The notes beneath the pieces are model-generated. The model had not been told where the DNA came from. It saw only the letters and a list, made by a program, of their open reading frames with translations, and searched no databases. This document shows positions 1,480-46,870 of a stretch of 64,000 nt of DNA, one piece after another. Origin of the DNA: an uncultured Lachnospiraceae bacterium. GTDB lineage: Bacteria > Bacillota > Clostridia > Lachnospirales > Lachnospiraceae. The stretch lies in NCBI GenBank assembly GCA_947089905.1, contig CAMUMG010000003.1, positions 142,442 through 206,441 on the forward strand. The letters are read 5' to 3'. The position numbers were made by a program, and so were the translations under genes. Positions within the stretch are counted from its first letter, which is position 1. The number at the start of each line of letters is the position of its first letter.

Positions 1480-2550
1480 TTATTTTACTTCTGTTACCCA
1501 ACCTCTTGTATCAGGGATTCTTCCTAGTTGAATTCCTGTTACAGTATCATATAACTTTTGACTTAACTTTCCGATTCCTCCATCTTGAATCTGAATTACA
1601 TGATCTTGAAATCTCAAATGTCCAACTGGAGAAATGACTGCTGCTGTTCCAGTTCCAAAAACTTCTTCCATATCTCCATTTTTGCTTGCCTCATACAATT
1701 CTTCTACACAGATACGACGTTCCTCTACTGGAAATCCCCACTCTTTACATAAAGCAATAACCGAATTTCTTGTAATTCCCGGAAGAATACTTCCATTTAA
1801 CATTGGAGTTAAAACTGTTCCACGAATCTTAAAGAAAATATTCATTGCACCTACTTCTTCAATATACTTTCTTTCTACCCCATCTAACCAAAGTACTTGA
1901 GAATATCCTTCCTCATGAGCCTTTAACTGGGCAGCCATTGATGCTACATAATTCCCGCCTGTCTTTGCTTCTCCAATTCCTCCACGAACTGCACGCACAT
2001 AGTCATCTTCAATCCAGATCTTTACTGGATTTAGACCTTCTGGATAATATGCTCCAACTGGAGAAAGAATAATCATAAATAAATAAGTATCTGATGGTCG
2101 AACTCCAAGGAATGGATCTGTCGCAATAATAAACGGTCGAATATAAAGGGATGTTTCTTTACGGTTTGGAATCCAAGCAGCATCTACTTTTACCAATTCT
2201 TTTACTGCCTGTACAAAATCTTCTTCTGGAATCTTTGGAATACAAAGACGTTCATTTGTATGATTGGTTCGCTTTGCATTCATATCTGGGCGAAACAGTA
2301 AAATCCTTCCGTCATCAGCACGATATGCTTTTAATCCTTCAAACATCTCCTGTCCATAGTGAAAGACCATTGCAGAAGGTTCTAGTACAACTGGCTGATA
2401 AGGAACAATTCTTGGATCATGCCATCCCTTTCCTGTCTCATAGTTCATAATAAACATATGATCTGTAAAAATTGTTCCAAATTTTAATGGATTTTCTGGT
2501 TCTGGAAGTGGTTTTGGATTTGTCGTCTTCTCTACTCTAATCGATAACAT
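1480..2550 (-). CDS. ilvE: Branched-chain amino acid aminotransferase
   Basis: This 356-residue, PLP-dependent fold-type IV aminotransferase carries out the last step of leucine, isoleucine and valine synthesis, or the first step of their breakdown. It is of the longer BCAT type found in eukaryotes and many Firmicutes. The PLP lysine is K196 in EAKTGGNY. EEVGAMN (231-237) and FGTGTAAVISPV (298-309) are the conserved substrate- and phosphate-binding stretches. It stands alone with its own promoter and terminator and is not part of an ilv operon here. Confidence 0.93.
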   Translation of the reverse strand: MLSIRVEKTTNPKPLPEPENPLKFGTIFTDHMFIMNYETGKGWHDPRIVPYQPVVLEPSAMVFHYGQEMFEGLKAYRADDGRILLFRPDMNAKRTNHTNERLCIPKIPEEDFVQAVKELVKVDAAWIPNRKETSLYIRPFIIATDPFLGVRPSDTYLFMIILSPVGAYYPEGLNPVKIWIEDDYVRAVRGGIGEAKTGGNYVASMAAQLKAHEEGYSQVLWLDGVERKYIEEVGAMNIFFKIRGTVLTPMLNGSILPGITRNSVIALCKEWGFPVEERRICVEELYEASKNGDMEEVFGTGTAAVISPVGHLRFQDHVIQIQDGGIGKLSQKLYDTVTGIQLGRIPDTRGWVTEVK

Positions 2551-2581
2551 AGATTTTCCCTCTTTCTGTAATGTTTCATAT

Positions 2582-2610
2582 ATCTTAGTCCTATATCAGT
2601 GATTTTTCAA
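2582..2610 (-). promoter_or_regulatory. Promoter of ilvE
   Basis: On the minus strand TTGAAA (2605-2610) and TAAGAT (2582-2587) are spaced by 17 bases, about 30 bases ahead of the ilvE start. Confidence 0.55.
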
Positions 2611-2628
2611 GTATTTTTTTTATAAACC

Positions 2629-2664
2629 AAAAAAAGGATCTGTCTATTATTCAGACAGATCCTT
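2629..2664 (-). terminator. Terminator of nrdD
   Basis: A 12-bp perfect stem (2634-2645 with 2653-2664) has a 7-base loop. On the minus strand it runs straight into a stretch of seven T (2629-2635). This is a textbook intrinsic terminator 35 bases after the nrdD stop. Confidence 0.9.
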
Positions 2665-2699
2665 CTATTTTTTAAAATATTATTTTATTTGTTACTAAT

Positions 2700-5090
2700 T
2701 TATAATAGTAATGCCTCTGAACGATTTCTTTCCGCAAACAGACGAATATCAGAAACATTGGCATATTTTTGAATTTCCCCATTTTGTCTTACAATTAAAG
2801 TTGGTGCCTGCATAATTCCATAAGCCATTGCACGCTCTGATTGTTCTTCTGCATCTACTGTCAGATAAGAAATACCATTTAGATATTGTTTTGCAAGCCT
2901 GCAGTTTGGACATGTTTTTGTGGTAAATAGATAAAGTCCATCTTCTTCTGAGCCTAAGTCAAGCGTAATTGGTTCTTTTTTAGGAAGTGATTCCTTTTGT
3001 TGTGCCTTAAAGCATCTCATCGCATCTACTTCATATTCTTTCCGGTTTTTAAACTCTTGAATCTTTCCTAAATTCCAATTTTTAATTGGACGATAATAAC
3101 CTGTGATTCTACTGTAAACTTCTGTTTCCTCTCCACATTCTGGACAGGTCATTTGTTCTCCCGTCAAATATCCATGTGTTCTACAGATAGAATAGGTTGG
3201 AGAAAGGGTATAATATGGCAAGCTATAATTTTCCGCAATCGTATGTACCAATTTAGCCGCAGCCTGCCAGTCTGGAAGTTTTTCTCCTAAAAAGGCGTGA
3301 AATACAGTTCCCGAAGTATATAATGTCTGTAACTGATCTTGAATATCTAAAGCGGCAAAAATATCTTCTGTATAATCTACTGGCAAATGAGAGCTATTTG
3401 TATAATATGGAGTATCTCCTTCATTTCCCGCAGTAATAATATCTGGAAAACGTTCTTTATCATGTTTTGCAAATCGATAGGTAGTAGATTCTGCAGGGGT
3501 TGCTTCCAGATTATAAAGATCTCCATATTGTACTTGATATTGACTTAAACGTTCACGCATATGATTTAAGACTTTAACAGAAAATTCCTGTACCTGTTTA
3601 TCTGTCATATCCTTACGAATCCATTTTGCATTCTTTCCAGCTTCATTCATTCCAATCAGTCCAATAGTTGAAAAATGATTATTAAAACTTCCAAGATAGC
3701 GTTTTGTATAAGGATATAGTCCTTCCTCTAATAATTTGCTAATTACATCCCGCTTTACTTTTAAAGAACGGGCAGCAACATCCATCATCCGATCTAAACG
3801 TTTAAAAAATTCTTTTTCATCTGCTGAAAGATAGGCGATTCTTGGCATATTGATAGTAACTACACCTACAGAACCTGTACTTTCTCCACTTCCAAAAAAT
3901 CCTCCCATCTTTTTTCTAAGTTCACGCAAATCAAGACGAAGACGACAGCACATAGAACGTACATCACTTGGCTGCATATCACTGTTGATATAGTTTGAAA
4001 AATAAGGTGTTCCATATTTTGCAGTCATTTCAAATAATAGACGATTATTTTCTGTATCTGACCAATCAAAATCCTTTGTGATTGAATAAGTTGGAATCGG
4101 ATACTGGAATCCCCTTCCGTTTGCATCTCCTTCAATCATAATTTCAATAAATGCCTTATTAATCATGTCCATTTCTTTTTTACAGTCTTTATATTTAAAA
4201 TCTACTTCTTTTCCGCCAATAATACAGTTTTGCTCTGCTAAATCAGCAGGTACCGTCCAATCTAGGGTAATATTAGAAAATGGAGCCTGTGTTCCCCAGC
4301 GACTTGGTGTATTTACCCCATAAATAAAGCATTGAATACATTGTTTTACTTCGTGATAATTGAGATGATCTACCTTTACAAACGGAGCTAAATAGGTATC
4401 AAATGAAGAAAATGCCTGTGCACCAGCCCATTCATTTTGCATAATTCCTAAGAAATTAACCATCTGATTACAAAGTGTAGATAAATGTTTTGCTGGAGCA
4501 GAAGTAATTTTTCCCGGAATTCCACCTAGTCCTTCTTTAATTAACTGCCTTAATGACCATCCAGCACAATATCCTGTCAGCATAGAAAGATCATGGATAT
4601 GGATGTCCCCATTGCGATGGGCAGAGGCAACCTCATCATCATAAATTTCGGACAACCAATAATTTGCTGTAATTGAGCCAGAATTATGTAAAATTAATCC
4701 TCCTACAGAGTAGGTTACTGTAGAATTTTCTTTAACTCTCCAGTCCTCTTCTTTTACGTAACTATTGACAATCTCTTTATAGTCTAAAATAGTTGATTTC
4801 ATATTTCGTATCTTTTCCCGATTTTTCCGGTAAAGAATATATGCTTTTGCAACATCAGTATATCCAGACTGTTCTAATGTATGTTCTACACTATCTTGAA
4901 TATCTTCTACAGAAACTTTTCCGTTTTTGGCTTTTGACTGAAAATCTGAAGTTACACGCAATGCCAACAGATTAATAATATCCTCATTATATAATTTTTC
5001 CGTTGCATTAAAAGCCTTTGAAATCGCATTCGTTATCTTTTGTAAATTAAATTCCGCAATTTCTCCATCTCGTTTGATTACTTCCATCAT
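2700..5090 (-). CDS. nrdD: Anaerobic ribonucleoside-triphosphate reductase with fused C-terminal redoxin domain
   Basis: This 796-residue class III ribonucleotide reductase makes dNTPs without oxygen using a glycyl radical. An ATP-cone occupies about residues 1-95, followed by the catalytic barrel. The zinc cysteines are seen at C636, C649 and C652, and the radical motif RITGYYRP has its glycine at G664. In most family members this glycine lies close to the C-terminus. Here about 130 residues follow, and residues 718-790 look like a glutaredoxin/thioredoxin-fold domain with a CPNC motif (C727 and C730) and a cis-proline-like APT. That suggests the reductant domain is built in. The activating enzyme gene nrdG is not adjacent. 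Start chosen: the first of two ATGs after GAGGTTGAT. Confidence 0.93.
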   Translation of the reverse strand: MMEVIKRDGEIAEFNLQKITNAISKAFNATEKLYNEDIINLLALRVTSDFQSKAKNGKVSVEDIQDSVEHTLEQSGYTDVAKAYILYRKNREKIRNMKSTILDYKEIVNSYVKEEDWRVKENSTVTYSVGGLILHNSGSITANYWLSEIYDDEVASAHRNGDIHIHDLSMLTGYCAGWSLRQLIKEGLGGIPGKITSAPAKHLSTLCNQMVNFLGIMQNEWAGAQAFSSFDTYLAPFVKVDHLNYHEVKQCIQCFIYGVNTPSRWGTQAPFSNITLDWTVPADLAEQNCIIGGKEVDFKYKDCKKEMDMINKAFIEIMIEGDANGRGFQYPIPTYSITKDFDWSDTENNRLLFEMTAKYGTPYFSNYINSDMQPSDVRSMCCRLRLDLRELRKKMGGFFGSGESTGSVGVVTINMPRIAYLSADEKEFFKRLDRMMDVAARSLKVKRDVISKLLEEGLYPYTKRYLGSFNNHFSTIGLIGMNEAGKNAKWIRKDMTDKQVQEFSVKVLNHMRERLSQYQVQYGDLYNLEATPAESTTYRFAKHDKERFPDIITAGNEGDTPYYTNSSHLPVDYTEDIFAALDIQDQLQTLYTSGTVFHAFLGEKLPDWQAAAKLVHTIAENYSLPYYTLSPTYSICRTHGYLTGEQMTCPECGEETEVYSRITGYYRPIKNWNLGKIQEFKNRKEYEVDAMRCFKAQQKESLPKKEPITLDLGSEEDGLYLFTTKTCPNCRLAKQYLNGISYLTVDAEEQSERAMAYGIMQAPTLIVRQNGEIQKYANVSDIRLFAERNRSEALLL

Positions 5091-5105
5091 ATCAACCTCG
5101 ATTCC

Positions 5106-5193
5106 GGAGTTGTTGCATTAAAGAAATCAGATATAAGATGTAACCTTCTACTAATATCTTATATTGTATATTCACTCTTAGTGCGACAACTCC
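5106..5193 (-). promoter_or_regulatory. Structured 5' leader of nrdD
   Basis: A 12-bp outer stem (5106-5117 with 5182-5193, one G-U pair) encloses a second perfect 9-bp stem (5131-5139 with 5156-5164). The element lies wholly within the nrdD transcript leader, between the promoter and the ribosome-binding site. It matches no riboswitch class I can name. The outer arms share the GGAGTTGT/ACAACTCC core seen at four other sites in this window. Confidence 0.5.
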
Positions 5194-5212
5194 ATAAATT
5201 TATTACGTTATG

Positions 5213-5241
5213 ATTGTATCAGAAAAGAAGTCATTCGTCAA
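5213..5241 (-). promoter_or_regulatory. Promoter of nrdD
   Basis: TTGACG (5236-5241) and TACAAT (5213-5218) on the minus strand are spaced by 17 bases. Transcription from here would give a leader of about 115 bases. Confidence 0.75.
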
Positions 5242-5247
5242 CTAAAA

Positions 5248-5294
5248 CTACTAGATATATTGCATATATTTAATTTTACCACTATATGTTGTGT
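5248..5294 (-). promoter_or_regulatory. Paired NrdR boxes upstream of nrdD
   Basis: Two NrdR-box-like sites lie just upstream of the -35. The distal one, CCACTATATGTTGTGT (5279-5294), matches the 16-bp palindromic consensus at nearly every position. The proximal one, CTACTAGATATATTGC (5248-5263), is a weaker match. Their starts are 31 bp apart, about three helical turns, the usual arrangement for NrdR. NrdR represses ribonucleotide reductase genes when dATP is plentiful. The regulator gene itself is not in this window. Confidence 0.65.
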
Positions 5295-5533
5295 AAAGCT
5301 GTCCTATATCTTATAGATTCTTTGAACTGATTTCAGACGATATAAATGGTTTTTATCTAATGCGTTTCAACTTAAATTACTCTTTGATTAATAACCGTAA
5401 ACGAAAAAAAATCGTGAAAAATAGATCTTAATTTTTCCAATTTTCTTATTGAAAACCTGTCATTTTATCAAAAAAGTTTCGATTTTTATATCTTTCGTCT
5501 TTGATACAAATAGATATTCAATAAAATTTTCAC
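5295..5533. other. AT-rich intergenic stretch downstream of hflX
   Basis: About 240 bases between the NrdR boxes and the 3' end of hflX. I see no open reading frame with a ribosome-binding site and no convincing hairpin terminator for hflX. Confidence 0.5.
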
Positions 5534-6775
5534 TTACAGAGAACTTAAATCTTTTGGAACATAGGCACGCACAAAAATTCCGTCTTCTCGATATTCTTCT
5601 GTTAAGAGTTGTCCAAACTTTCTAATTTTAGAAAGTTTTGCTGTATCAGTATATGGAATAATCCATTCTACTAACTGCTTTTGTTCTTGTAATACCTTTG
5701 AAAAGAGTTCTAATAGCTGCGAAATTCCCTCTCCTGTCTTAGCAGACAATTTTACAACATAATCTGCCTTAAAATCTCTTATAATTGGATTTTCTGAAAC
5801 AAGATCCTGTTTATTAAAAATTGTAATAATAGTTTTATTTTTAATTTCTAACTGTCTTAATGTTTCATAGACAACGTGCATTTGTAAATCTAAATTGGGA
5901 TTAGATAAATCTACCACATGAAGAATAAAATCTGCATACTTTGCTTCCTCTAATGTTGAACGAAAAGCATCGACTAAATGGTGTGGAAGTTTTTGAATAA
6001 ATCCTACTGTATCTGTTAAAAGAAGCTGCTGCCCATTTTCTAGTGTAAGATTTCGTGTTGTTGGATCTAATGTAGCAAATAACTTGTTCTCTTCTAAAAC
6101 TCCTGCTTTAGTCAGCCGATTTAATAGAGTAGATTTTCCAGCATTCGTATATCCTACAATCGCAGCCACAGGAATTTGATTTTTCTCTCTTAATGCTCTT
6201 GCAACTTCTCTACTGCGTTTTACCTGTTCTAATTCTTTATTTAATTGAGAAATTCTATTGCGGATTAATCTTCGATCCATCTCCAACTTTTTTTCTCCTG
6301 GTCCTCTTGTTCCAATTCCTCCTCCTAATCTTGATAAAGCGGTTCCCATTCCAATCAGCCTTGTAGATTGATATTTTAACTGGGCTAACTCTACCTGAAT
6401 TTTTCCCTCTTTTGTTACTGCATGTTGTGCAAAAATATCTAAAATCAACATAGTCCTATCCATTACTTTCATTTCCAATGCAATTTCTAAATTTTTCATC
6501 TGGGCAGGAGAAAGCTCATCATCGCAAATGATGCCAGTTGCATGATTTTCGACAGCAAGTGCTGCTACTTCCTCTATTTTTCCACTTCCAATATAAGTTC
6601 CCGGATGAATTTTTTCTCTATTTTGAATCACCATTCCTACACTTTCTGCTCCAGCAGTCTGTACTAATTCTGCCAATTCCTCCAAGGACTCTTTTGTAGC
6701 ATCCTGTTCATTTAGTGCTACTCCAACTAAAATAACACGTTCTACTTCTTCTTTGATTTCAATTAATTCTGCCAT
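5534..6775 (-). CDS. hflX: GTPase HflX
   Basis: This 413-residue protein is a ribosome-associated GTPase that splits stalled or hibernating 70S ribosomes under stress. The N-terminal HflX domain has the conserved HPGTYIGSGK (57-66), and the linker has GTRGPGEKKLE (155-165). The G domain carries GYTNAGKST (208-216, P-loop), DTVGF (255-259) and NKQD (321-324). Length and order match the family. It lies 28 bases after the TPR lipoprotein gene and is probably co-transcribed with it. Confidence 0.95.
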   Translation of the reverse strand: MAELIEIKEEVERVILVGVALNEQDATKESLEELAELVQTAGAESVGMVIQNREKIHPGTYIGSGKIEEVAALAVENHATGIICDDELSPAQMKNLEIALEMKVMDRTMLILDIFAQHAVTKEGKIQVELAQLKYQSTRLIGMGTALSRLGGGIGTRGPGEKKLEMDRRLIRNRISQLNKELEQVKRSREVARALREKNQIPVAAIVGYTNAGKSTLLNRLTKAGVLEENKLFATLDPTTRNLTLENGQQLLLTDTVGFIQKLPHHLVDAFRSTLEEAKYADFILHVVDLSNPNLDLQMHVVYETLRQLEIKNKTIITIFNKQDLVSENPIIRDFKADYVVKLSAKTGEGISQLLELFSKVLQEQKQLVEWIIPYTDTAKLSKIRKFGQLLTEEYREDGIFVRAYVPKDLSSL

Positions 6776-42290: not shown

Positions 42291-42553
42291 TAAAAAAAAC
42301 TCGTTCCTTTCCTCTTTCGCTGTATCATAACAGACGAAAGGGAAAAGGGACGAGTATTGACTCGTGGTTCCACCCTCTTTGGCTTATATAAAACCCACTT
42401 CATTCGACGATAACGGAATCACCGGGCTGGATTAGAGCCACTCCGAGGTAGTATTCGGCAGGTTGTACAATGGAATATTTTCAGCAAATCATATTCCTCT
42501 CTGGAAAGTGTCCACTGCTTACTCTTCTCATCACTGCATTTTCCTAATTGATG
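42291..42553 (-). promoter_or_regulatory. T-box leader (threonine) of thrS
   Basis: The conserved T-box AGGGTGGAACCAC is read on the minus strand at 42364-42376. It is followed by a long terminator whose arms start ACTCGT (42299 and 42355), ending in a run of eight T. When uncharged tRNA-Thr binds, the antiterminator forms and thrS is read. Upstream stem I sequence is present (about 42400-42550). A threonine specifier is plausible in GTACAACCTG, but I cannot tell whether ACA or ACC is used. Confidence 0.92.
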
Positions 42554-43255: not shown

Positions 43256-43582
43256 TTAGGAAAGTTGTTTTTTATAGTTTATCCCCCATTCTTCCATAGC
43301 CATAATGATAGGGTACATAGACCGTCCTAAATCATTTAAGGCGTATTCCACACGAGGCGGCACTTCCGGGTAAACAGTACGGGTAATAATTTCGTCTGCT
43401 TCCATAGAGCGCAAACTATCCGTTAAAACTTTTTGGCTGATACCCTCTAAAGATTTTTTTAATTCATTGAAACGCCATGAACGCTGTAAAAGGTTACGCA
43501 AGATAAGTAATTTCCATTTACTTCCGATAAGCTGTACGGTTGTTGCTACTGGACATTCTGGCAGTTCTTCTTTTGTCAGCAT
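43256..43582 (-). CDS. HxlR family transcriptional regulator
   Basis: This 108-residue winged-helix protein of the HxlR/DUF24 family begins with CPVATTVQLIGSKWKLLILRNL, with the conserved Cys at residue 10 that can act as a redox or electrophile sensor in relatives such as YodB. The wing region PRVEYALNDLGRSM is also typical. AAAGGAG lies 8 bases before the ATG. It is divergent from the ACG-repeat peptide operon and probably controls it. Confidence 0.9.
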   Translation of the reverse strand: MLTKEELPECPVATTVQLIGSKWKLLILRNLLQRSWRFNELKKSLEGISQKVLTDSLRSMEADEIITRTVYPEVPPRVEYALNDLGRSMYPIIMAMEEWGINYKKQLS

Positions 43583-43626
43583 AAAATAGCTCCTTTCAAA
43601 AGTTCAAAAAAGAATGTTGTACTCTA

Positions 43627-43655
43627 ATTATAATATAACAATCGCTTCCGTTCAA
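43627..43655 (-). promoter_or_regulatory. Promoter of the HxlR regulator
   Basis: TTGAAC (43650-43655) and TATAAT (43627-43632) on the minus strand are spaced by 17 bases. GTTGTACTC (43616-43624) lies just downstream and shares its core with the site at 43718. Confidence 0.7.
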
Positions 43656-43717
43656 GAGGAGTTACAAAAAGGTGACTAAGTAATAGATTTGTGCGTACTT
43701 TTTTTCGTTTTCATCAC

Positions 43718-43733
43718 GTTGTACAATGTACTC
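43718..43733 (+). promoter_or_regulatory. Candidate -10 and HxlR operator of the peptide operon
   Basis: GTTGTACAATGTACTC contains a GTAC-AAT-GTAC palindrome overlapping a possible -10 TACAAT (43722-43727); the -35 is weak. Half of the site (GTTGTAC) recurs in the regulator's own promoter region, as expected if HxlR binds both. This is inference. Confidence 0.4.
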
Positions 43734-43777
43734 AAGGAACAAGAAAGTTCCTAAATTCACAATGGAGGTATTGAAAA

Positions 43778-43990
43778 ATGGCACTCTCAAATTTAACTGG
43801 CTGGAATGAAAAATCTGCTACATCTGCTTGTGGAGCTTCAGACAAGCCGGAAGAAAAACCCGCTGCTTGCGGTTCTGCTTGTGGGGCTTCAGACAAGCCA
43901 GAAGAAAAGCCTACTGCTTGCGGTTCTGCTTGTGGGGCTTCAGACAAACCGGAAGAAAAGCCTGCTGCTTGTGGAGCTTCGGACAAATAA
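43778..43990 (+). CDS. ACG-X repeat peptide, putative radical-SAM RiPP precursor
   Basis: This 70-residue peptide begins with a short leader-like segment (MALSNLTGWNEKSAT). Three consecutive 17-residue units follow, SACGASDKPEEKPAACG with A or T at one position (residues 16-66), and then ASDK. The six cysteines (18, 31, 35, 48, 52, 65) all lie in ACG followed by A or S, alternating 12- and 3-residue gaps. Differences between DNA units are almost all synonymous, so this frame is under selection. TGGAGG lies 9 bases upstream. It precedes a radical SAM/SPASM enzyme and a nitroreductase. I recall an 'ACGX system' in TIGRFAM/NCBIfam with this pairing; product and chemistry are unknown to me. Confidence 0.9.
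   Translation: MALSNLTGWNEKSATSACGASDKPEEKPAACGSACGASDKPEEKPTACGSACGASDKPEEKPAACGASDK
43823..43987 (+). repeat. 51-bp tandem repeats within the precursor gene
   Basis: Units at 43823-43873, 43874-43924 and 43925-43975 are followed by a partial fourth. Consecutive units differ at 5 of 51 positions. Four of the five changes are synonymous in each comparison. Confidence 0.9.
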
Positions 43991-44003
43991 GGAGTTTTAA
44001 TTC

Positions 44004-44040
44004 CAACAATCTCCGGTGGAGCTGTTGTTCTATCGGAGAT
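44004..44040 (+). other. Alternative hairpins between precursor and maturase genes
   Basis: Two stems compete for the same CTCCG. One is CAACA/TGTTG with CTCC-GGT-GGAG (44004-44027). The other is ATCTCCG with CGGAGAT (44009-44015 with 44034-44040). This 121-base gap could lower expression of the enzymes relative to the peptide, as in many RiPP operons. Function is inferred. Confidence 0.45.
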
Positions 44041-44111
44041 ACCCTCAAATAAAATCCGATATTATCGGTTTTCAAATAAATATTAAATGGCTATCTAATG
44101 GAGGAAATAAC

Positions 44112-45146
44112 ATGAAACAATACTTTGCTTTTCAGTGGCATATTACGGACGAGTGCGACCAACGCTGTAAACACTGTTACATTTTTTCTGAGAATAATTG
44201 TAAAAAACCGGATGCAATGGATTGGGCGCAAATGCAGGAAACTTTTTATAACTGTCTTGATTTTTGTGAAGTTTATGGGAGGTTGCCCTATTTTTATATC
44301 ACTGGCGGCGACCCTATTTTACACCAAGATTTTTGGCGGCTTCTTACTCTGATAAAAGAGCATGAAATCCCATTTACGATTTTAGGAAATCCGTTTCATT
44401 TGTCAAATGAGGTTTGTCAAAAATTGAAATCATATGGCTGTCAAAAATACCAGCTTTCCCTTGACGGAATGAAAGATACTCACGATTGGTTTCGTAAACC
44501 GGATTCTTTTGATTGTACTCTTGAAAAAATTGCTTGTATCAAAAAGGCGGGTATTCGTTCTGTCATTATGACTACAGTATCTGGTACGAACATTAAGGAA
44601 GTTCCCGATATAATTGATACTGTTGTTTCTGCTGGTGTTGATGTGTTTGCCTTTGCCCGTTACTGCCCCACCAGTGAAGAAAAAGACACGGGCATTTCTC
44701 CGCTTGAATACCGGGAATTGCTTGATATATGCTATAACAAATTTCAGAAATATGAAGCGGAGGGCTGTCACACCTATTTTAACAAAAAAGACCACCTTTG
44801 GACGCTTTATGAGTATGAAAAAGGGATTTTCAAAATCCCAGAAGACGTACAAGATAGCATGATATACGGCGGCTGTAATTGTGGTAACTGTCACATGACA
44901 ATCTTACCAACGGGAGATATCTACGCCTGCCGCCGGGTACAAGGCAGTAAAGTCGGAAACGTATTTAATGACCGTCTTGCGGATATTTGGGTTTGTCAAA
45001 TGGAAGCATATCGTGATTATACAAAATTTGAGAAATGTTCCAAGTGCGAGCTGCTTGCATTTTGCCGTGGCTGTCCCGCAGTAGCAAGTGGTAAAGACGG
45101 AAATTTTTATGCAGCTGATCCACAATGCTGGAAGGAGATTGTTTGA
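44112..45146 (+). CDS. Radical SAM/SPASM peptide maturase
   Basis: This 344-residue enzyme has the radical SAM cluster motif CDQRCKHC (C15, C19, C22) and the SAM-binding GGD (65-67). Its C-terminal SPASM domain has many cysteines (C255, C257, C260, C273, C309, C312, C318, C321, C339), enough for two auxiliary clusters. Such enzymes form thioether or C-C crosslinks in ribosomal peptides. The neighbouring Cys-rich repeat peptide is the obvious substrate. The start at 44112 follows GGAGG; an in-frame ATG at 44016 lies in the hairpin region without one. GC content is visibly higher than in flanking genes. Confidence 0.92.
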   Translation: MKQYFAFQWHITDECDQRCKHCYIFSENNCKKPDAMDWAQMQETFYNCLDFCEVYGRLPYFYITGGDPILHQDFWRLLTLIKEHEIPFTILGNPFHLSNEVCQKLKSYGCQKYQLSLDGMKDTHDWFRKPDSFDCTLEKIACIKKAGIRSVIMTTVSGTNIKEVPDIIDTVVSAGVDVFAFARYCPTSEEKDTGISPLEYRELLDICYNKFQKYEAEGCHTYFNKKDHLWTLYEYEKGIFKIPEDVQDSMIYGGCNCGNCHMTILPTGDIYACRRVQGSKVGNVFNDRLADIWVCQMEAYRDYTKFEKCSKCELLAFCRGCPAVASGKDGNFYAADPQCWKEIV

Positions 45147-45148
45147 TT

Positions 45149-45736
45149 ATGAATGAAACAATGCAGACTATTTTACACCGCCGTGCAATCAGGCGTTTTG
45201 ATGCAAGGCAGATAGATGAAGAACTTTTACAGCAAATATTACAAGCAGGACTTTATGCTCCAAGTGCGGGCGGGAAACAGGGAGTGATTTTTGTAGTATG
45301 CCAAGACAAAGAGGTGAATGAACGGTTAGGAAAAATCAAACGGGCAAACTCTAATCCCCATATGGCAACAGCACAAAATTACGTGTCCAAAGAACAGCCA
45401 AGTATTGCAGACGACCCTAAGCTGATAAATGCTTTTTATGACACACCGACCGTTATTACAATGTTTGCCCCGAAAAATTTTCTCTTTTCTGTAGATGATT
45501 GTGCAGTTGCTGCCGAAAATATGATGTTAGCAGCGGACTCTTTTGGGATTGGTTCTTGTTATATCGGGCAAGGCTGGACAGCTTTTGCAGATAGCTACGG
45601 ACAGGAAATTTTGCGTAAATGGGAAATTCGCACAGATTATTATGCTGTCATGCAGGTCTTGTTAGGCTATCCAAAAGCAGACGACAAGCACCCCGTAGCG
45701 AAGGCACGCAAAAATGATAGAATTTTAAGATTTTAG
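45149..45736 (+). CDS. Nitroreductase-family FMN oxidoreductase
   Basis: This 195-residue nitroreductase-fold protein has the phosphate-binding HRRAIRRF (about 8-15), APSAGGKQ (about 38-45) and CAVAAENMMLAADSFGIGSCYIG in the second half, all typical FMN contacts. It begins 2 bases after the radical SAM stop, with AAGGAG overlapping the end of that gene. The tight coupling suggests that it acts in the same pathway, for example in redox modification of the peptide or in electron supply. A general nitro/quinone reductase is the alternative. Confidence 0.88.
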   Translation: MNETMQTILHRRAIRRFDARQIDEELLQQILQAGLYAPSAGGKQGVIFVVCQDKEVNERLGKIKRANSNPHMATAQNYVSKEQPSIADDPKLINAFYDTPTVITMFAPKNFLFSVDDCAVAAENMMLAADSFGIGSCYIGQGWTAFADSYGQEILRKWEIRTDYYAVMQVLLGYPKADDKHPVAKARKNDRILRF

Positions 45737-45739
45737 TTG

Positions 45740-45774
45740 TCAGAAAGGCTATTATAATATAGTCGCCTTTCTGA
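45740..45774 (+). terminator. Terminator of the ACG-repeat operon
   Basis: TCAGAAAGGC (45740-45749) pairs perfectly with GCCTTTCTGA (45765-45774) just after the nitroreductase stop. A clear T-run is lacking. Confidence 0.6.
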
Positions 45775-45894: not shown

Positions 45895-46251
45895 ATGCTA
45901 AGTCCGAAAGAAATAGTAAATAAATGGGTAGATGCCTTTAATGCTGGTGATGTAGACATGATTACCAACCTGTATGATAATAATGCAATAAATCATCAAG
46001 TTGCAAATGAACCTGTTATAGGGGTTGCGGCTATTAGAGAAATGTTTGTGAATGAGTTTTCAACTGCGAAAATGGTTTGTATTGTGGAAAATATCTTTGA
46101 AGACGGACAATGGGCTATCTTAGAATGGAAAGACCCATTAGGATTGCGTGGGTGCGGATTTTTCCATGTTGTAAATGAAAAAATATTATTCCAACGTGGA
46201 TATTGGGATAAGCTTTCTTTCTTAAAGCAACATAACCTCCCTATAGAATAG
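45895..46251 (+). CDS. SnoaL-like/NTF2-fold protein
   Basis: This 118-residue protein has the hallmark NTF2-fold opening, VNKWVDAFNAGDVDMITNLYDNNAINHQ, and a beta-rich second half ending in the WDKL strand. Relatives include polyketide cyclases and small isomerases or ligand-binding proteins. No substrate can be inferred. AAAAGGAG precedes the start. It lies in the island downstream of the peptide operon, separated from it by a hairpin. Confidence 0.75.
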   Translation: MLSPKEIVNKWVDAFNAGDVDMITNLYDNNAINHQVANEPVIGVAAIREMFVNEFSTAKMVCIVENIFEDGQWAILEWKDPLGLRGCGFFHVVNEKILFQRGYWDKLSFLKQHNLPIE

Positions 46252-46324: not shown

Positions 46325-46870
46325 ATGAAATACAACAAAATAATAGTAATAAAAAATGGCATGGAATGTTGTTTGAGAAATGCAGACGAAAATGATGGAC
46401 AACTTGTATTAGATAACTTTAATTTAACCCATGCTCAAACTGATTATTTACTTACATATCCTGACGAAAATAGCTTTGACGTAATACAAGAAAGTCAATT
46501 TCTAAAGGAAAAGACCGATAGTGAAAATGAAATCGAAATCATTGCTATAGTTAATGATACGATTATAGGAACTGCTGGAATCGAAGCTGTAGGCACGAAA
46601 TATAAGGTGCGACATCGCGCTGAATTTGGTATTAGTGTTCTTAAAGAATTCTGGGGACTTGGTATTGGACAAGCATTGATGACTTCATGTATTGAATGTG
46701 CAAAATCAGCAGGATATAGCCAGCTTGAGCTGAATGTAGTTGCTGAAAATGTAAGAGCGTTATCTATGTATAAACAAGCAGGATTTGTTGAATATGGAAG
46801 AAATCCACAGGGTTTTAATTCTCGTATGACAGGATTTCAGGAAGTTGTTTATATGAGGTTGGAATTGTAA
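46325..46870 (+). CDS. GNAT family N-acetyltransferase
   Basis: This 181-residue acetyl-CoA-dependent transferase has the acetyl-CoA loop in EFWGLGIGQALM (about 115-126) and the following LELNVVAENVRALSMYKQAGF region, both diagnostic. Substrate unknown; relatives modify ribosomal proteins, amines or antibiotics. It is the last gene of the island and is followed by a terminator. Confidence 0.88.
   Translation: MKYNKIIVIKNGMECCLRNADENDGQLVLDNFNLTHAQTDYLLTYPDENSFDVIQESQFLKEKTDSENEIEIIAIVNDTIIGTAGIEAVGTKYKVRHRAEFGISVLKEFWGLGIGQALMTSCIECAKSAGYSQLELNVVAENVRALSMYKQAGFVEYGRNPQGFNSRMTGFQEVVYMRLEL

What the first reader, a model, noticed from the sequence alone, without database searches (positions are those of the whole stretch)
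43256..45774. Compact radical-SAM system on an ACG-X repeat peptide: regulator, precursor, SPASM maturase and nitroreductase
Seen: a 70-residue peptide with three near-identical 17-residue units and six Cys in exact periodic spacing (12 and 3 residues between), all in ACG-A/S. It is followed by a radical SAM/SPASM enzyme with nine extra cysteines, then a nitroreductase 2 bases later, with an HxlR regulator divergent. Known: SPASM enzymes make thioether or carbon crosslinks in Cys-rich RiPPs. I recall an 'ACGX' pairing named in TIGRFAM/NCBIfam but no characterised product. Inference: each repeat carries one Cys pair, so three repeated modifications would form a modular product. There is no exporter, peptidase or immunity gene, and the leader is only about 15 residues, so the product may stay in the cell and serve as a redox or metal-binding peptide rather than a bacteriocin. 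The pairing with a nitroreductase suggests a second flavin step.
Basis: partly seen in the sequence, partly recalled or inferred. Interest (0 to 1): 0.93.

Follow-up and report, generated by a model that had tools for sequence, protein, structure and literature searches.

The report
Anaerobic thiooxazole stress-peptide operon
A bacterial gene set pairs a small protein built of repeated Ala-Cys-Gly units with a radical enzyme that is predicted to turn its cysteines into reactive sulfur rings, which would likely give oxygen-shy bacteria an internal sponge against thiol-damaging stress.

Summary
43778-43990 encodes a 70-residue ACGX-repeat peptide (NCBIfam TIGR04341), followed by its radical SAM/SPASM maturase (TIGR04340), a nitroreductase and a divergent HxlR regulator. 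The family is catalogued; my searches found no characterised product. New from 75 related loci: (1) the repeating unit is one ACG, not a Cys pair: Gly follows 380 of 382 cysteines, Ala precedes 370, while spacing, pairing and repeat number vary. (2) A promoter box, GTGCGTACTT, sits 20-21 nt before a -10 element in 51 of 51 box-bearing loci; the regulator keeps an N-terminal Cys in 46 of 46. (3) The nitroreductase alternates with an MDR-type oxidoreductase (44 and 24 of 71 loci, both in one), so it is probably a stress enzyme rather than a second tailoring step. (4) A SirTM ADP-ribosyltransferase homologue often lies nearby. After its own family, the window maturase scores best against the thiooxazole maturase SbtM, well under that model's cut-off. 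Best reading: an intracellular, thiol-stress-induced peptide whose cysteines likely become 5-thiooxazoles without oxygen. Main rival: Cys-x3-Asp thioethers, since Asp/Glu stands at +4 of 206 of 221 block-final cysteines. Product chemistry and function are untested.

The parts
43256..43582 (-). HxlR/DUF24 regulator with a single Cys (Cys10), divergent from the operon
   Evidence: Pfam PF01638 108 bits; RrpB-like 116.9 bits but under the NCBIfam cut-off of 175; Cys10-equivalent present in 46 of 46 divergent homologues, window included
43660..43677 (.). imperfect inverted repeat AGTTAC-N6-GTGACT, likely part of the regulator's operator
   Evidence: GTnAC-like arms before the box in 45 of 51 box-bearing loci, at most 8 in 200 shuffles; 6+6 inverted repeat with at most one mismatch in 32 of 51, at most 15 in 200 shuffles; operator function inferred
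43691..43700 (+). promoter box GTGCGTACTT
   Evidence: exact in 37 of 43 hxlR-to-peptide intergenic regions under 500 bp, maximum of any 10-mer in 20 mononucleotide shuffles 3; in 51 of 64 loci with at least 150 bp upstream; composite site occurs once in the own genome at up to 3 mismatches
43722..43727 (+). -10 element TACAAT, 21 nt after the box
   Evidence: TAnnnT-type -10 at 20 (7) or 21 (44) nt after the box in 51 of 51 box-bearing loci, at most 8 at any other offset
43778..43990 (+). ACGX-repeat precursor peptide, 70 aa: short MALSNLTGW leader, six ACG units
   Evidence: TIGR04341 78.5 bits; tandem repeat; precursor upstream of the maturase in 69 of 76 loci
43991..44111 (+). 121-bp spacer with a predicted stable stem-loop between peptide and maturase genes
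   Evidence: 55 of 64 spacers fold with z below -2 against 60 mononucleotide shuffles each; window z -4.4
44112..45146 (+). radical SAM/SPASM maturase, 344 aa
   Evidence: TIGR04340 602 bits; AF2 model mean pLDDT 88.9, best PDB matches SuiB, anSMEcpe and 5why
45149..45736 (+). nitroreductase-family oxidoreductase, likely a stress enzyme
   Evidence: PF00881 86.6 bits; best NCBIfam PRK10765 oxygen-insensitive NADPH nitroreductase 53 bits, under cut-off 223

Best explanation
This operon encodes an ACG-repeat peptide that is likely modified by its radical SAM/SPASM enzyme, predicted to oxidise each Ala-Cys-Gly cysteine by four electrons to a 5-thiooxazole, so that the cell would gain an oxygen-independent, cytosolic counterpart of the MNIO-made captophorins and bufferins. 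Proposed sequence of events: thiol-reactive stress is sensed through the single Cys of the HxlR regulator (inferred); the regulator acts at the conserved GTnAC/GTGCGTACTT promoter (site shown, action inferred); the peptide is made in excess over the maturase, a spacer hairpin helping (inferred); the maturase binds the MALSNLxGW leader and works along the ACG units (inferred); the multi-thiol peptide then buffers oxidants, electrophiles or soft metals, with capacity scaling with the number of units (inferred), while the neighbouring nitroreductase, or in other genomes an MDR-type oxidoreductase, removes quinones or nitro compounds (inferred). Shown: gene order, repeat grammar, promoter architecture, alternation of the oxidoreductase, and nearest characterised maturase family by model score.
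For: Unit: of 382 Cys in 63 unique precursors, +1 is Gly in 380 and -1 is Ala in 370; +2, +3, pairing, spacing and Cys number (2-12) vary. An Ala-Cys-Gly core fits measured rules for 5-thiooxazole formation by FonBC: its double variant with ACG in place of KCG was tolerated, and at the position after Cys only Ala replaced Gly (PMC12668002, section 11). Enzyme: SbtM is the best non-self NCBIfam model of the window maturase (149 bits; AhbD 118, PapB 55); all 38 maturases of A1 match the SbtM model and its best E-value, 2.4e-57, is the lowest of the non-self families listed (ranks of the other 37 were not shown). In 199 phylum genomes searched with the SbtM model the three top matches are the window maturase and two maturases with ACG peptides beside them. 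SbtM removes four hydrogens and makes a thiooxazole (PMC11002830 passages), and PMC12668002 groups its product with 5-thiooxazoles by UV absorbance (passage). Fold: the AF2 model matches anSMEcpe, SuiB and 5why; that anSME oxidises a Cys is recalled. Stress context: HxlR/DUF24 regulator with an N-terminal Cys, of a family whose members HypR, YodB and CatR sense HOCl, quinones and diamide through such Cys, with the nitroreductase YodC in their regulons (PMC6943732 passages); nitroreductase or MDR in 67 of 71 loci; SirTM homologues in 22 of 25 maturase-bearing genomes against 76 of 175 others. Buffer role: 27 of 40 locus pairs with maturases over 90% identical differ in Cys number, at least 36 changes on a quick tree. 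MNIO enzymes (PF05114): 0 of 200 genomes of the family, maturase in 25 of 200 drawn the same way.
Against: No product has been measured. The SbtM score is far below that model's cut-off (350 bits), AhbD and NirJ are not far behind, SbtM's profile has 197 N-terminal positions that this enzyme does not match, and I could not fetch SbtM or read its primary paper. Asp/Glu at +4 of 206 of 221 block-final cysteines has no role in a thiooxazole and fits the thioether rival. The parallel with FonBC is between unrelated enzymes. Absence of MNIOs is to be expected in anaerobes and is weak support. I saw no metal-resistance gene recur next to the operon, so metal binding is unsupported by context. Two divergent intact maturases (G015, G109) have no ACG peptide in the stretches read, and 13 of 64 loci lack the exact promoter box.
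Confidence: 0.42

Rival explanations
1. Ranthipeptide-type product: the maturase would join each block-final Cys to the Asp or Glu four residues on (Cys-x3-Asp/Glu) through a thioether, leaving the other Cys of each CGxxC pair free.
For: +4 is Asp or Glu in 206 of 221 block-final cysteines; PapB makes Cys-x3-Asp/Glu thioethers, six per peptide (PMC9413430 passages); the fold search also finds 5why, a thioether-forming maturase.
Against: 15 of 221 block-final Cys have no acid at +4 (one of them a leader Cys of L020), including 4 of 5 in L029, whose maturase is open; this rival needs neither Ala(-1) nor Gly(+1), yet these are the most conserved positions; PapB itself accepts varied spacers, so such exceptions do not exclude it; PapB is only the 21st model in the list at 55 bits; 161 of 382 Cys have Cys, not an acid, at +4.
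Confidence: 0.27
2. Another Cys oxidation by an anSME-like or AhbD/NirJ-like reaction, for example a thioaldehyde, formylglycine, sactionine or dehydro residue at each ACG.
For: AF2 model matches anSMEcpe structures (TM about 0.75); AhbD, TIGR04053 and NirJ models score 105-118 bits.
Against: Lower scores than SbtM; no anSME model among the 25 of 59 families shown; ACG is not the sulfatase motif (recalled).
Confidence: 0.17
3. One reading: SPASM crosslink plus a nitroreductase-catalysed second peptide modification, one per Cys-pair repeat.
For: The nitroreductase is 2 bases downstream and present within 3.5 kb in 44 of 71 loci.
Against: 24 of 71 loci have an MDR-type oxidoreductase, both in 1, neither in 4; at least 9 exchanges on a quick maturase tree, 5-6 forced by its starred branches; Cys pairing not conserved; no SagB/McbC-type match.
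Confidence: 0.07
4. A secreted bacteriocin or signal peptide.
For: Many SPASM-modified peptides are bacteriocins or signals (established knowledge).
Against: No recurrent exporter, peptidase or immunity gene seen near the maturase (judged largely by eye); no signal peptide apparent by eye; repeat number changes freely between near-identical systems.
Confidence: 0.04

Closest known systems
NCBIfam ACGX system (TIGR04340 maturase and TIGR04341 peptide)
   Same: Both proteins pass the curated cut-offs by a wide margin; same gene pair.
   Different: Nothing: the window locus is a member. I found no characterised product of the family in the searches made.
SbtA/SbtM thio(seleno)oxazole RiPP
   Same: Best non-self model of the window maturase; matched by all 38 maturases scanned; radical SAM/SPASM enzyme acting on a Cys-bearing peptide.
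   Different: Score 149 against cut-off 350; the first 197 profile positions unmatched; multi-repeat ACG substrate. SbtA itself was not compared.
MNIO captophorins and bufferins (fontiphorin, oxazolin)
   Same: Repeated short Cys-Gly units, one modification per Cys, stress linkage; FonBC accepts an ACG core.
   Different: Those use an O2-dependent MNIO enzyme; no PF05114 in 200 family genomes. No signal peptide apparent here.
PapA/PapB (freyrasin) ranthipeptide
   [quoted passage not shown] SPASM maturase.
   Different: PapB model only 55 bits (cut-off 340); ACG flanks nearly invariant here; 176 of 382 Cys lack an acid at +4.
HypR/YodB-type DUF24 thiol-stress regulons of Bacillus subtilis
   Same: HxlR/DUF24 regulator with an N-terminal Cys beside a nitroreductase.
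   Different: Adds a RiPP precursor and its maturase, likely under the same control.
SirTM/Zn-macrodomain operons
   Same: SirTM homologues in 28 and macrodomain hydrolases in 14 of 63 loci begin within 3.5 kb downstream of the maturase.
   [quoted passage not shown] aureus and S. pyogenes is lipoylated GcvH-L (PMC11490716 passages); here an ACG peptide stands in the neighbourhood. The window lacks the pair beside the operon; its genome has two SirTM homologues elsewhere.

Membership tests
ACGX-repeat peptide (TIGR04341) | score above curated cut-off 28 | tested here: met
   78.5 bits
rSAM_ACGX maturase (TIGR04340) | score above curated cut-off 400 | tested here: met
   602.4 bits
radical SAM/SPASM enzymes | CX3CX2C cluster motif and SPASM cysteines | tested here: met
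   C15/C19/C22 and eight SPASM-region Cys invariant in 38 of 38 aligned; PF04055 and PF13186 above cut-off
SbtM thio(seleno)oxazole maturase (TIGR04082) | score above curated cut-off 350 | tested here: not met
   149.2 bits, second-best model; profile positions 198-515 only
SbtM thio(seleno)oxazole maturase (TIGR04082) | four-hydrogen loss and thiooxazole on Cys | not testable with these tools
   needs mass spectrometry and NMR
PapB ranthipeptide maturase (NF047865) | score above curated cut-off 340 | tested here: not met
   55.3 bits
PapA-type substrates | modified Cys in Cys-x3-Asp/Glu | tested here: inconclusive
   206 of 221 block-final Cys, 206 of 382 of all Cys
captophorins/bufferins | MNIO (PF05114) enzyme | tested here: not met
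   no match in the own genome or in any of the 200 genomes searched
HxlR/DUF24 thiol sensors | N-terminal redox Cys | tested here: met
   Cys10-equivalent in 46 of 46; redox activity untested
SagB/McbC-type azoline dehydrogenases | match to such a model | tested here: not met
   7 NCBIfam matches of the nitroreductase at E up to 0.1, none of that type

The most novel reading that the evidence does not exclude
ACGX systems are the anaerobic answer to captophorins: a radical SAM enzyme writes strings of thiooxazoles onto a repeat peptide without oxygen, and in the many genomes with a nearby SirTM/Zn-macrodomain pair the modified peptide is the missing ADP-ribosylation target, its conserved Asp at Cys+4 playing the part that the Asp of lipoyl-GcvH-L plays in Staphylococcus and Streptococcus; the system would be a reversible, ADP-ribose-gated thiol buffer.
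Probability: 0.1. Interest if true: 0.87.

Novelty: new variant of a known kind. Interest (0 to 1): 0.62.

Why it matters
ACGX peptides and their maturases are common (maturase in 25 of 200 sampled genomes of one family), but I found no product or function in the searches made. The comparison replaces a vague Cys-pair idea by a sharp, measurable choice: -4 Da per Cys (thiooxazole) or -2 Da per block (thioether). If the first holds, multi-thiooxazole stress peptides can be made without O2-dependent enzymes, widening a class described so far mainly for O2-using MNIOs. The promoter box, thiol-type regulator, alternation of the oxidoreductase and SirTM linkage also give a physiological test: induction by thiol-reactive chemicals.

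Tried and rejected
Cys pair as repeat unit: rejected. Nitroreductase as dedicated tailoring enzyme: judged unlikely because it alternates with an MDR-type enzyme. Selenocysteine in the maturase of G155 (in-frame TGA at the place of C321): read instead as decay, since homology also ends there, no start codon is seen in line and no peptide is found upstream. Bacteriocin: no supporting genes seen. Regulon beyond this operon: the composite site occurs once in the own genome. An inverted repeat with up to two mismatches before the box proved uninformative (46 of 51 against a shuffle mean of 35), so only the stricter counts are used. Literature: 0 papers, 28 papers, 20 listed, none on this topic by title, 2 papers, neither on ACGX by title, 0 papers; radical SAM with thiooxazole, 9 papers, 7 listed. 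Papers not held: PMC3133131 and PMC8935624, the SbtM primary paper. Of the papers used I saw abstracts or passages found by search terms, and of PMC12668002 also the whole of section 11; none was read in full.

Rows dropped: of 69 loci with a precursor, five (L007 frame-altered, L017 without a usual start, L023, L025 and L028 partial) were left out of the residue counts, leaving 64 loci, 63 unique peptides. Of 76 loci, seven show no precursor: L038, L059, L071, L077 are cut by the contig start; L041, L060 and L079 have a partial maturase and a damaged, empty or broken-off upstream stretch. HxlR count: nine of 76 loci were set aside, 46 of the remaining 67 have a divergent hxlR; of the 21 without, four have under 1 kb upstream and six have an hxlR elsewhere in the locus. 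The box/HxlR table (37/5/8/5 of 55, Fisher p 0.045) lists L016 as lacking hxlR although its ORF only overran the cut-off. Adjacency of SirTM within 5 kb was read by me from the listings; the overlap of genome handles was recounted. Fisher tests treat related loci as independent. Shuffles kept single-base composition only. The tree is a quick one with 30 of 71 inner branches open.
Full report
1. What is there. The window holds, in order, a HxlR-family gene on the minus strand (43256-43582), a 195-bp divergent promoter region, a 70-residue peptide gene (43778-43990), a 121-bp spacer, a radical SAM/SPASM gene (44112-45146) and, 2 bases on, a nitroreductase gene (45149-45736). The peptide matches NCBIfam TIGR04341 and the enzyme TIGR04340, both far above cut-off: this is a member of the named ACGX system. 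The tandem repeat is real: 51-bp unit, 2.9 copies, 91% matches.

2. Relatives. One scan of genome contigs gave 75 loci whose best segments are 56-95% identical to the maturase; most cover nearly all of it, L077 and L079 only a C-terminal part. A precursor with at least two ACG/SCG units lies upstream in 69 of 76 loci including the window; the other seven are cut, partial or damaged. In 200 genomes of the host's family the maturase occurs in 25 (24 over the cut-off) and the peptide model in 19 (18 over the cut-off), all 19 among those 25. Of the six others, G169 has an eroded two-Cys peptide, G067 a remnant peptide and a maturase with a stop, G155 a broken maturase and no peptide, G128 ends at the contig edge, and G015 and G109 have intact, divergent maturases with no ACG peptide in the stretches read. 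G126, one of the 19, has a one-Cys remnant and a truncated maturase. So peptide and maturase tend to decay together, with two orphan maturases as exceptions.

3. Repeat grammar. In 63 unique precursors with 382 Cys, the residue after Cys is Gly in 380 and the residue before is Ala in 370 (Ser 9, Val 2, Asp 1). At +4 stands Cys (161) or Asp/Glu (206), something else in 15. Gaps between Cys are 3 residues in 161 and 12 in 104 of 319, with 54 others from 8 to 19; only 37 of 63 peptides keep to 3 and 12. Cys number runs from 2 to 12 and is odd in 22 of 63; 27 of 40 locus pairs with maturases over 90% identical differ in Cys number, and a quick tree needs at least 36 changes of it. The conserved element is thus a single Ala-Cys-Gly, multiplied at will. 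A Trp near residue 9 of the leader is kept in 60 of 63.

4. Maturase. Across 38 aligned members the radical SAM cysteines C15, C19, C22 and eight SPASM-region cysteines are invariant. The AF2 model (mean pLDDT 88.9) matches SuiB, anSMEcpe, 5why (CteB, name recalled) and SkfB structures, consistent with a SPASM enzyme with auxiliary clusters; no separate peptide-recognition domain is evident at 344 residues (inference). After its own family, the best NCBIfam model is SbtM (149 bits), then AhbD (118), TIGR04053 (111), NirJ1 (107); PapB has 55. All 38 members match the SbtM model, best E 2.4e-57, against 2.7e-37 for AhbD and 2.1e-20 for PapB. Searching 199 genomes of the phylum with the SbtM model, none passes its cut-off, and the three top scorers are the window enzyme and two maturases with ACG peptides beside them; the next, not ACGX, has 136 bits.

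5. What the chemistry may be. SbtM removes four hydrogens from Cys-containing substrate and forms a thiooxazole (passages of PMC11002830). The preprint PMC12668002 shows 5-thiooxazoles on repeated EGKCG peptides and groups the SbtM product with them by absorbance (passages). Its section 11, which I read, reports that FonBC tolerates a peptide with ACG in place of KCG and, at the position after Cys, only Ala in place of Gly. The ACGX core therefore satisfies the flanking rules measured for this modification, though for an unrelated enzyme. The rival is a Cys-x3-Asp/Glu thioether as made by PapB (passages of PMC9413430): the acid at +4 of 206 of 221 block-final cysteines is the strongest fact in its favour; 15 exceptions, the near-invariant Ala and Gly, and the low PapB score speak against it. 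I hold thiooxazole somewhat more likely, not shown.

6. Regulation. The regulator has a Cys near its N-terminus in 46 of 46 divergent homologues, and it is the only Cys in all but L036 and the overlong frame of L055. The DUF24 members HypR, YodB and CatR sense HOCl, quinones and diamide through such a Cys (passages of PMC6943732). The promoter carries GTGCGTACTT, exact in 37 of 43 intergenic regions (shuffle maximum 3) and in 51 of 64 loci with enough upstream sequence. A -10 element starts 20 or 21 nt after it in 51 of 51, and GTnAC-type arms precede it in 45 of 51 against at most 8 in shuffles. Of 55 loci, 37 have both adjacent hxlR and box, 5 hxlR alone (four of these with a one-mismatch box at 86-89 nt), 8 box alone, 5 neither. 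The three loci with a LysR-type gene in place of hxlR (L049, L052, L058) all lack the box. The composite site occurs once in the own genome. Between peptide and maturase, 55 of 64 spacers fold more stably than shuffles by z below -2, which may raise peptide over enzyme (inference).

7. Neighbours. Of 71 loci with at least 1.2 kb downstream, 44 have a nitroreductase and 24 an MDR-type oxidoreductase within 3.5 kb, 1 both, 4 neither; the first recognised gene is the nitroreductase in 43, the MDR in 20, a PNPOx-ferredoxin protein in 6 (Fisher p 1.5e-13, loci not independent; at least 9 changes between the two states on a quick tree). Alternation of two unrelated oxidoreductase families argues that the shared need is reduction of quinone- or nitro-type compounds, not a flavin step on the peptide (inference). 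The MDR representative's best model is a putative NAD(P)H quinone oxidoreductase, 145 bits, under cut-off 297. Within 3.5 kb downstream, 63 loci hold the PNPOx-ferredoxin protein in 30, SirTM in 28, a macrodomain hydrolase in 14 (families from representatives). In the 200-genome sample SirTM homologues occur in 22 of 25 maturase genomes and 76 of 175 others (p 2.3e-5) and lie within 5 kb of the maturase in 14 of the 25. PMC11490716 (passages) ties SirTM/Zn-macro pairs to oxidative stress and says that GcvH-L is the only known SirTM target; the words radical SAM do not occur in its main text.

8. Judgement. The locus is an ordinary member of a catalogued but, as far as my searches go, uncharacterised family; what is new is the comparative anatomy, which points to an intracellular thiol-stress peptide and to a sharp test of its chemistry. 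Shown: gene pair, repeat grammar, promoter, alternation of oxidoreductases, SirTM linkage, model scores. Inferred: thiooxazole formation, stress induction, buffering. Novel reading, not excluded: oxygen-independent captophorin analogue and SirTM target.

Noticed in passing
window 42343-42543 (-): T-box leader (RF00230, 99 bits) upstream of a gene that looks by eye like threonyl-tRNA synthetase on the minus strand; ordinary.
   Followed up: no
L030, L031, L057, L066 and others, 0.6-3.5 kb downstream of the maturase: SirTM homologues (PDB 5a3a relative) and macrodomain hydrolases follow the ACGX operon in many relatives, though not in the window.
   Followed up: partly
L049, L052, L058 upstream of the peptide gene: A divergent LysR-type regulator stands in place of hxlR, and the GTGCGTACTT box is absent there.
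   Followed up: partly
L096 (G155) 2046-5629: A decaying copy of the operon: hxlR kept, peptide not found, maturase broken, macrodomain open, SirTM with a stop inside.
   Followed up: partly
L094 (G015) and L095 (G109): Divergent intact maturases without an ACG peptide in the stretch read; they lack C260 and may act on another substrate. L094 has a small Cys-rich reading frame about 0.8 kb downstream (4384-4593 of the reversed locus) of unknown reality.
   Followed up: partly
L101 (G184): From a genome with two ACGX maturases; this one has a peptide with a different leader and CHCAISH in the SPASM region.
   Followed up: no
L085 1513-2544: An otherwise typical ACGX maturase that reads Arg in place of the first radical SAM cysteine; sequence error or a dead enzyme.
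   Followed up: no
window 45895-46251 and 46325-46870 (+): SnoaL-like and GNAT-family genes follow the nitroreductase; no SnoaL match and one distant GNAT match in the 75 loci.
   Followed up: partly
L036 7610-8239 and relatives: A PNPOx-fold protein with 4Fe-4S ferredoxin motifs, in 30 of 63 loci; a possible electron donor for the radical SAM enzyme.
   Followed up: no
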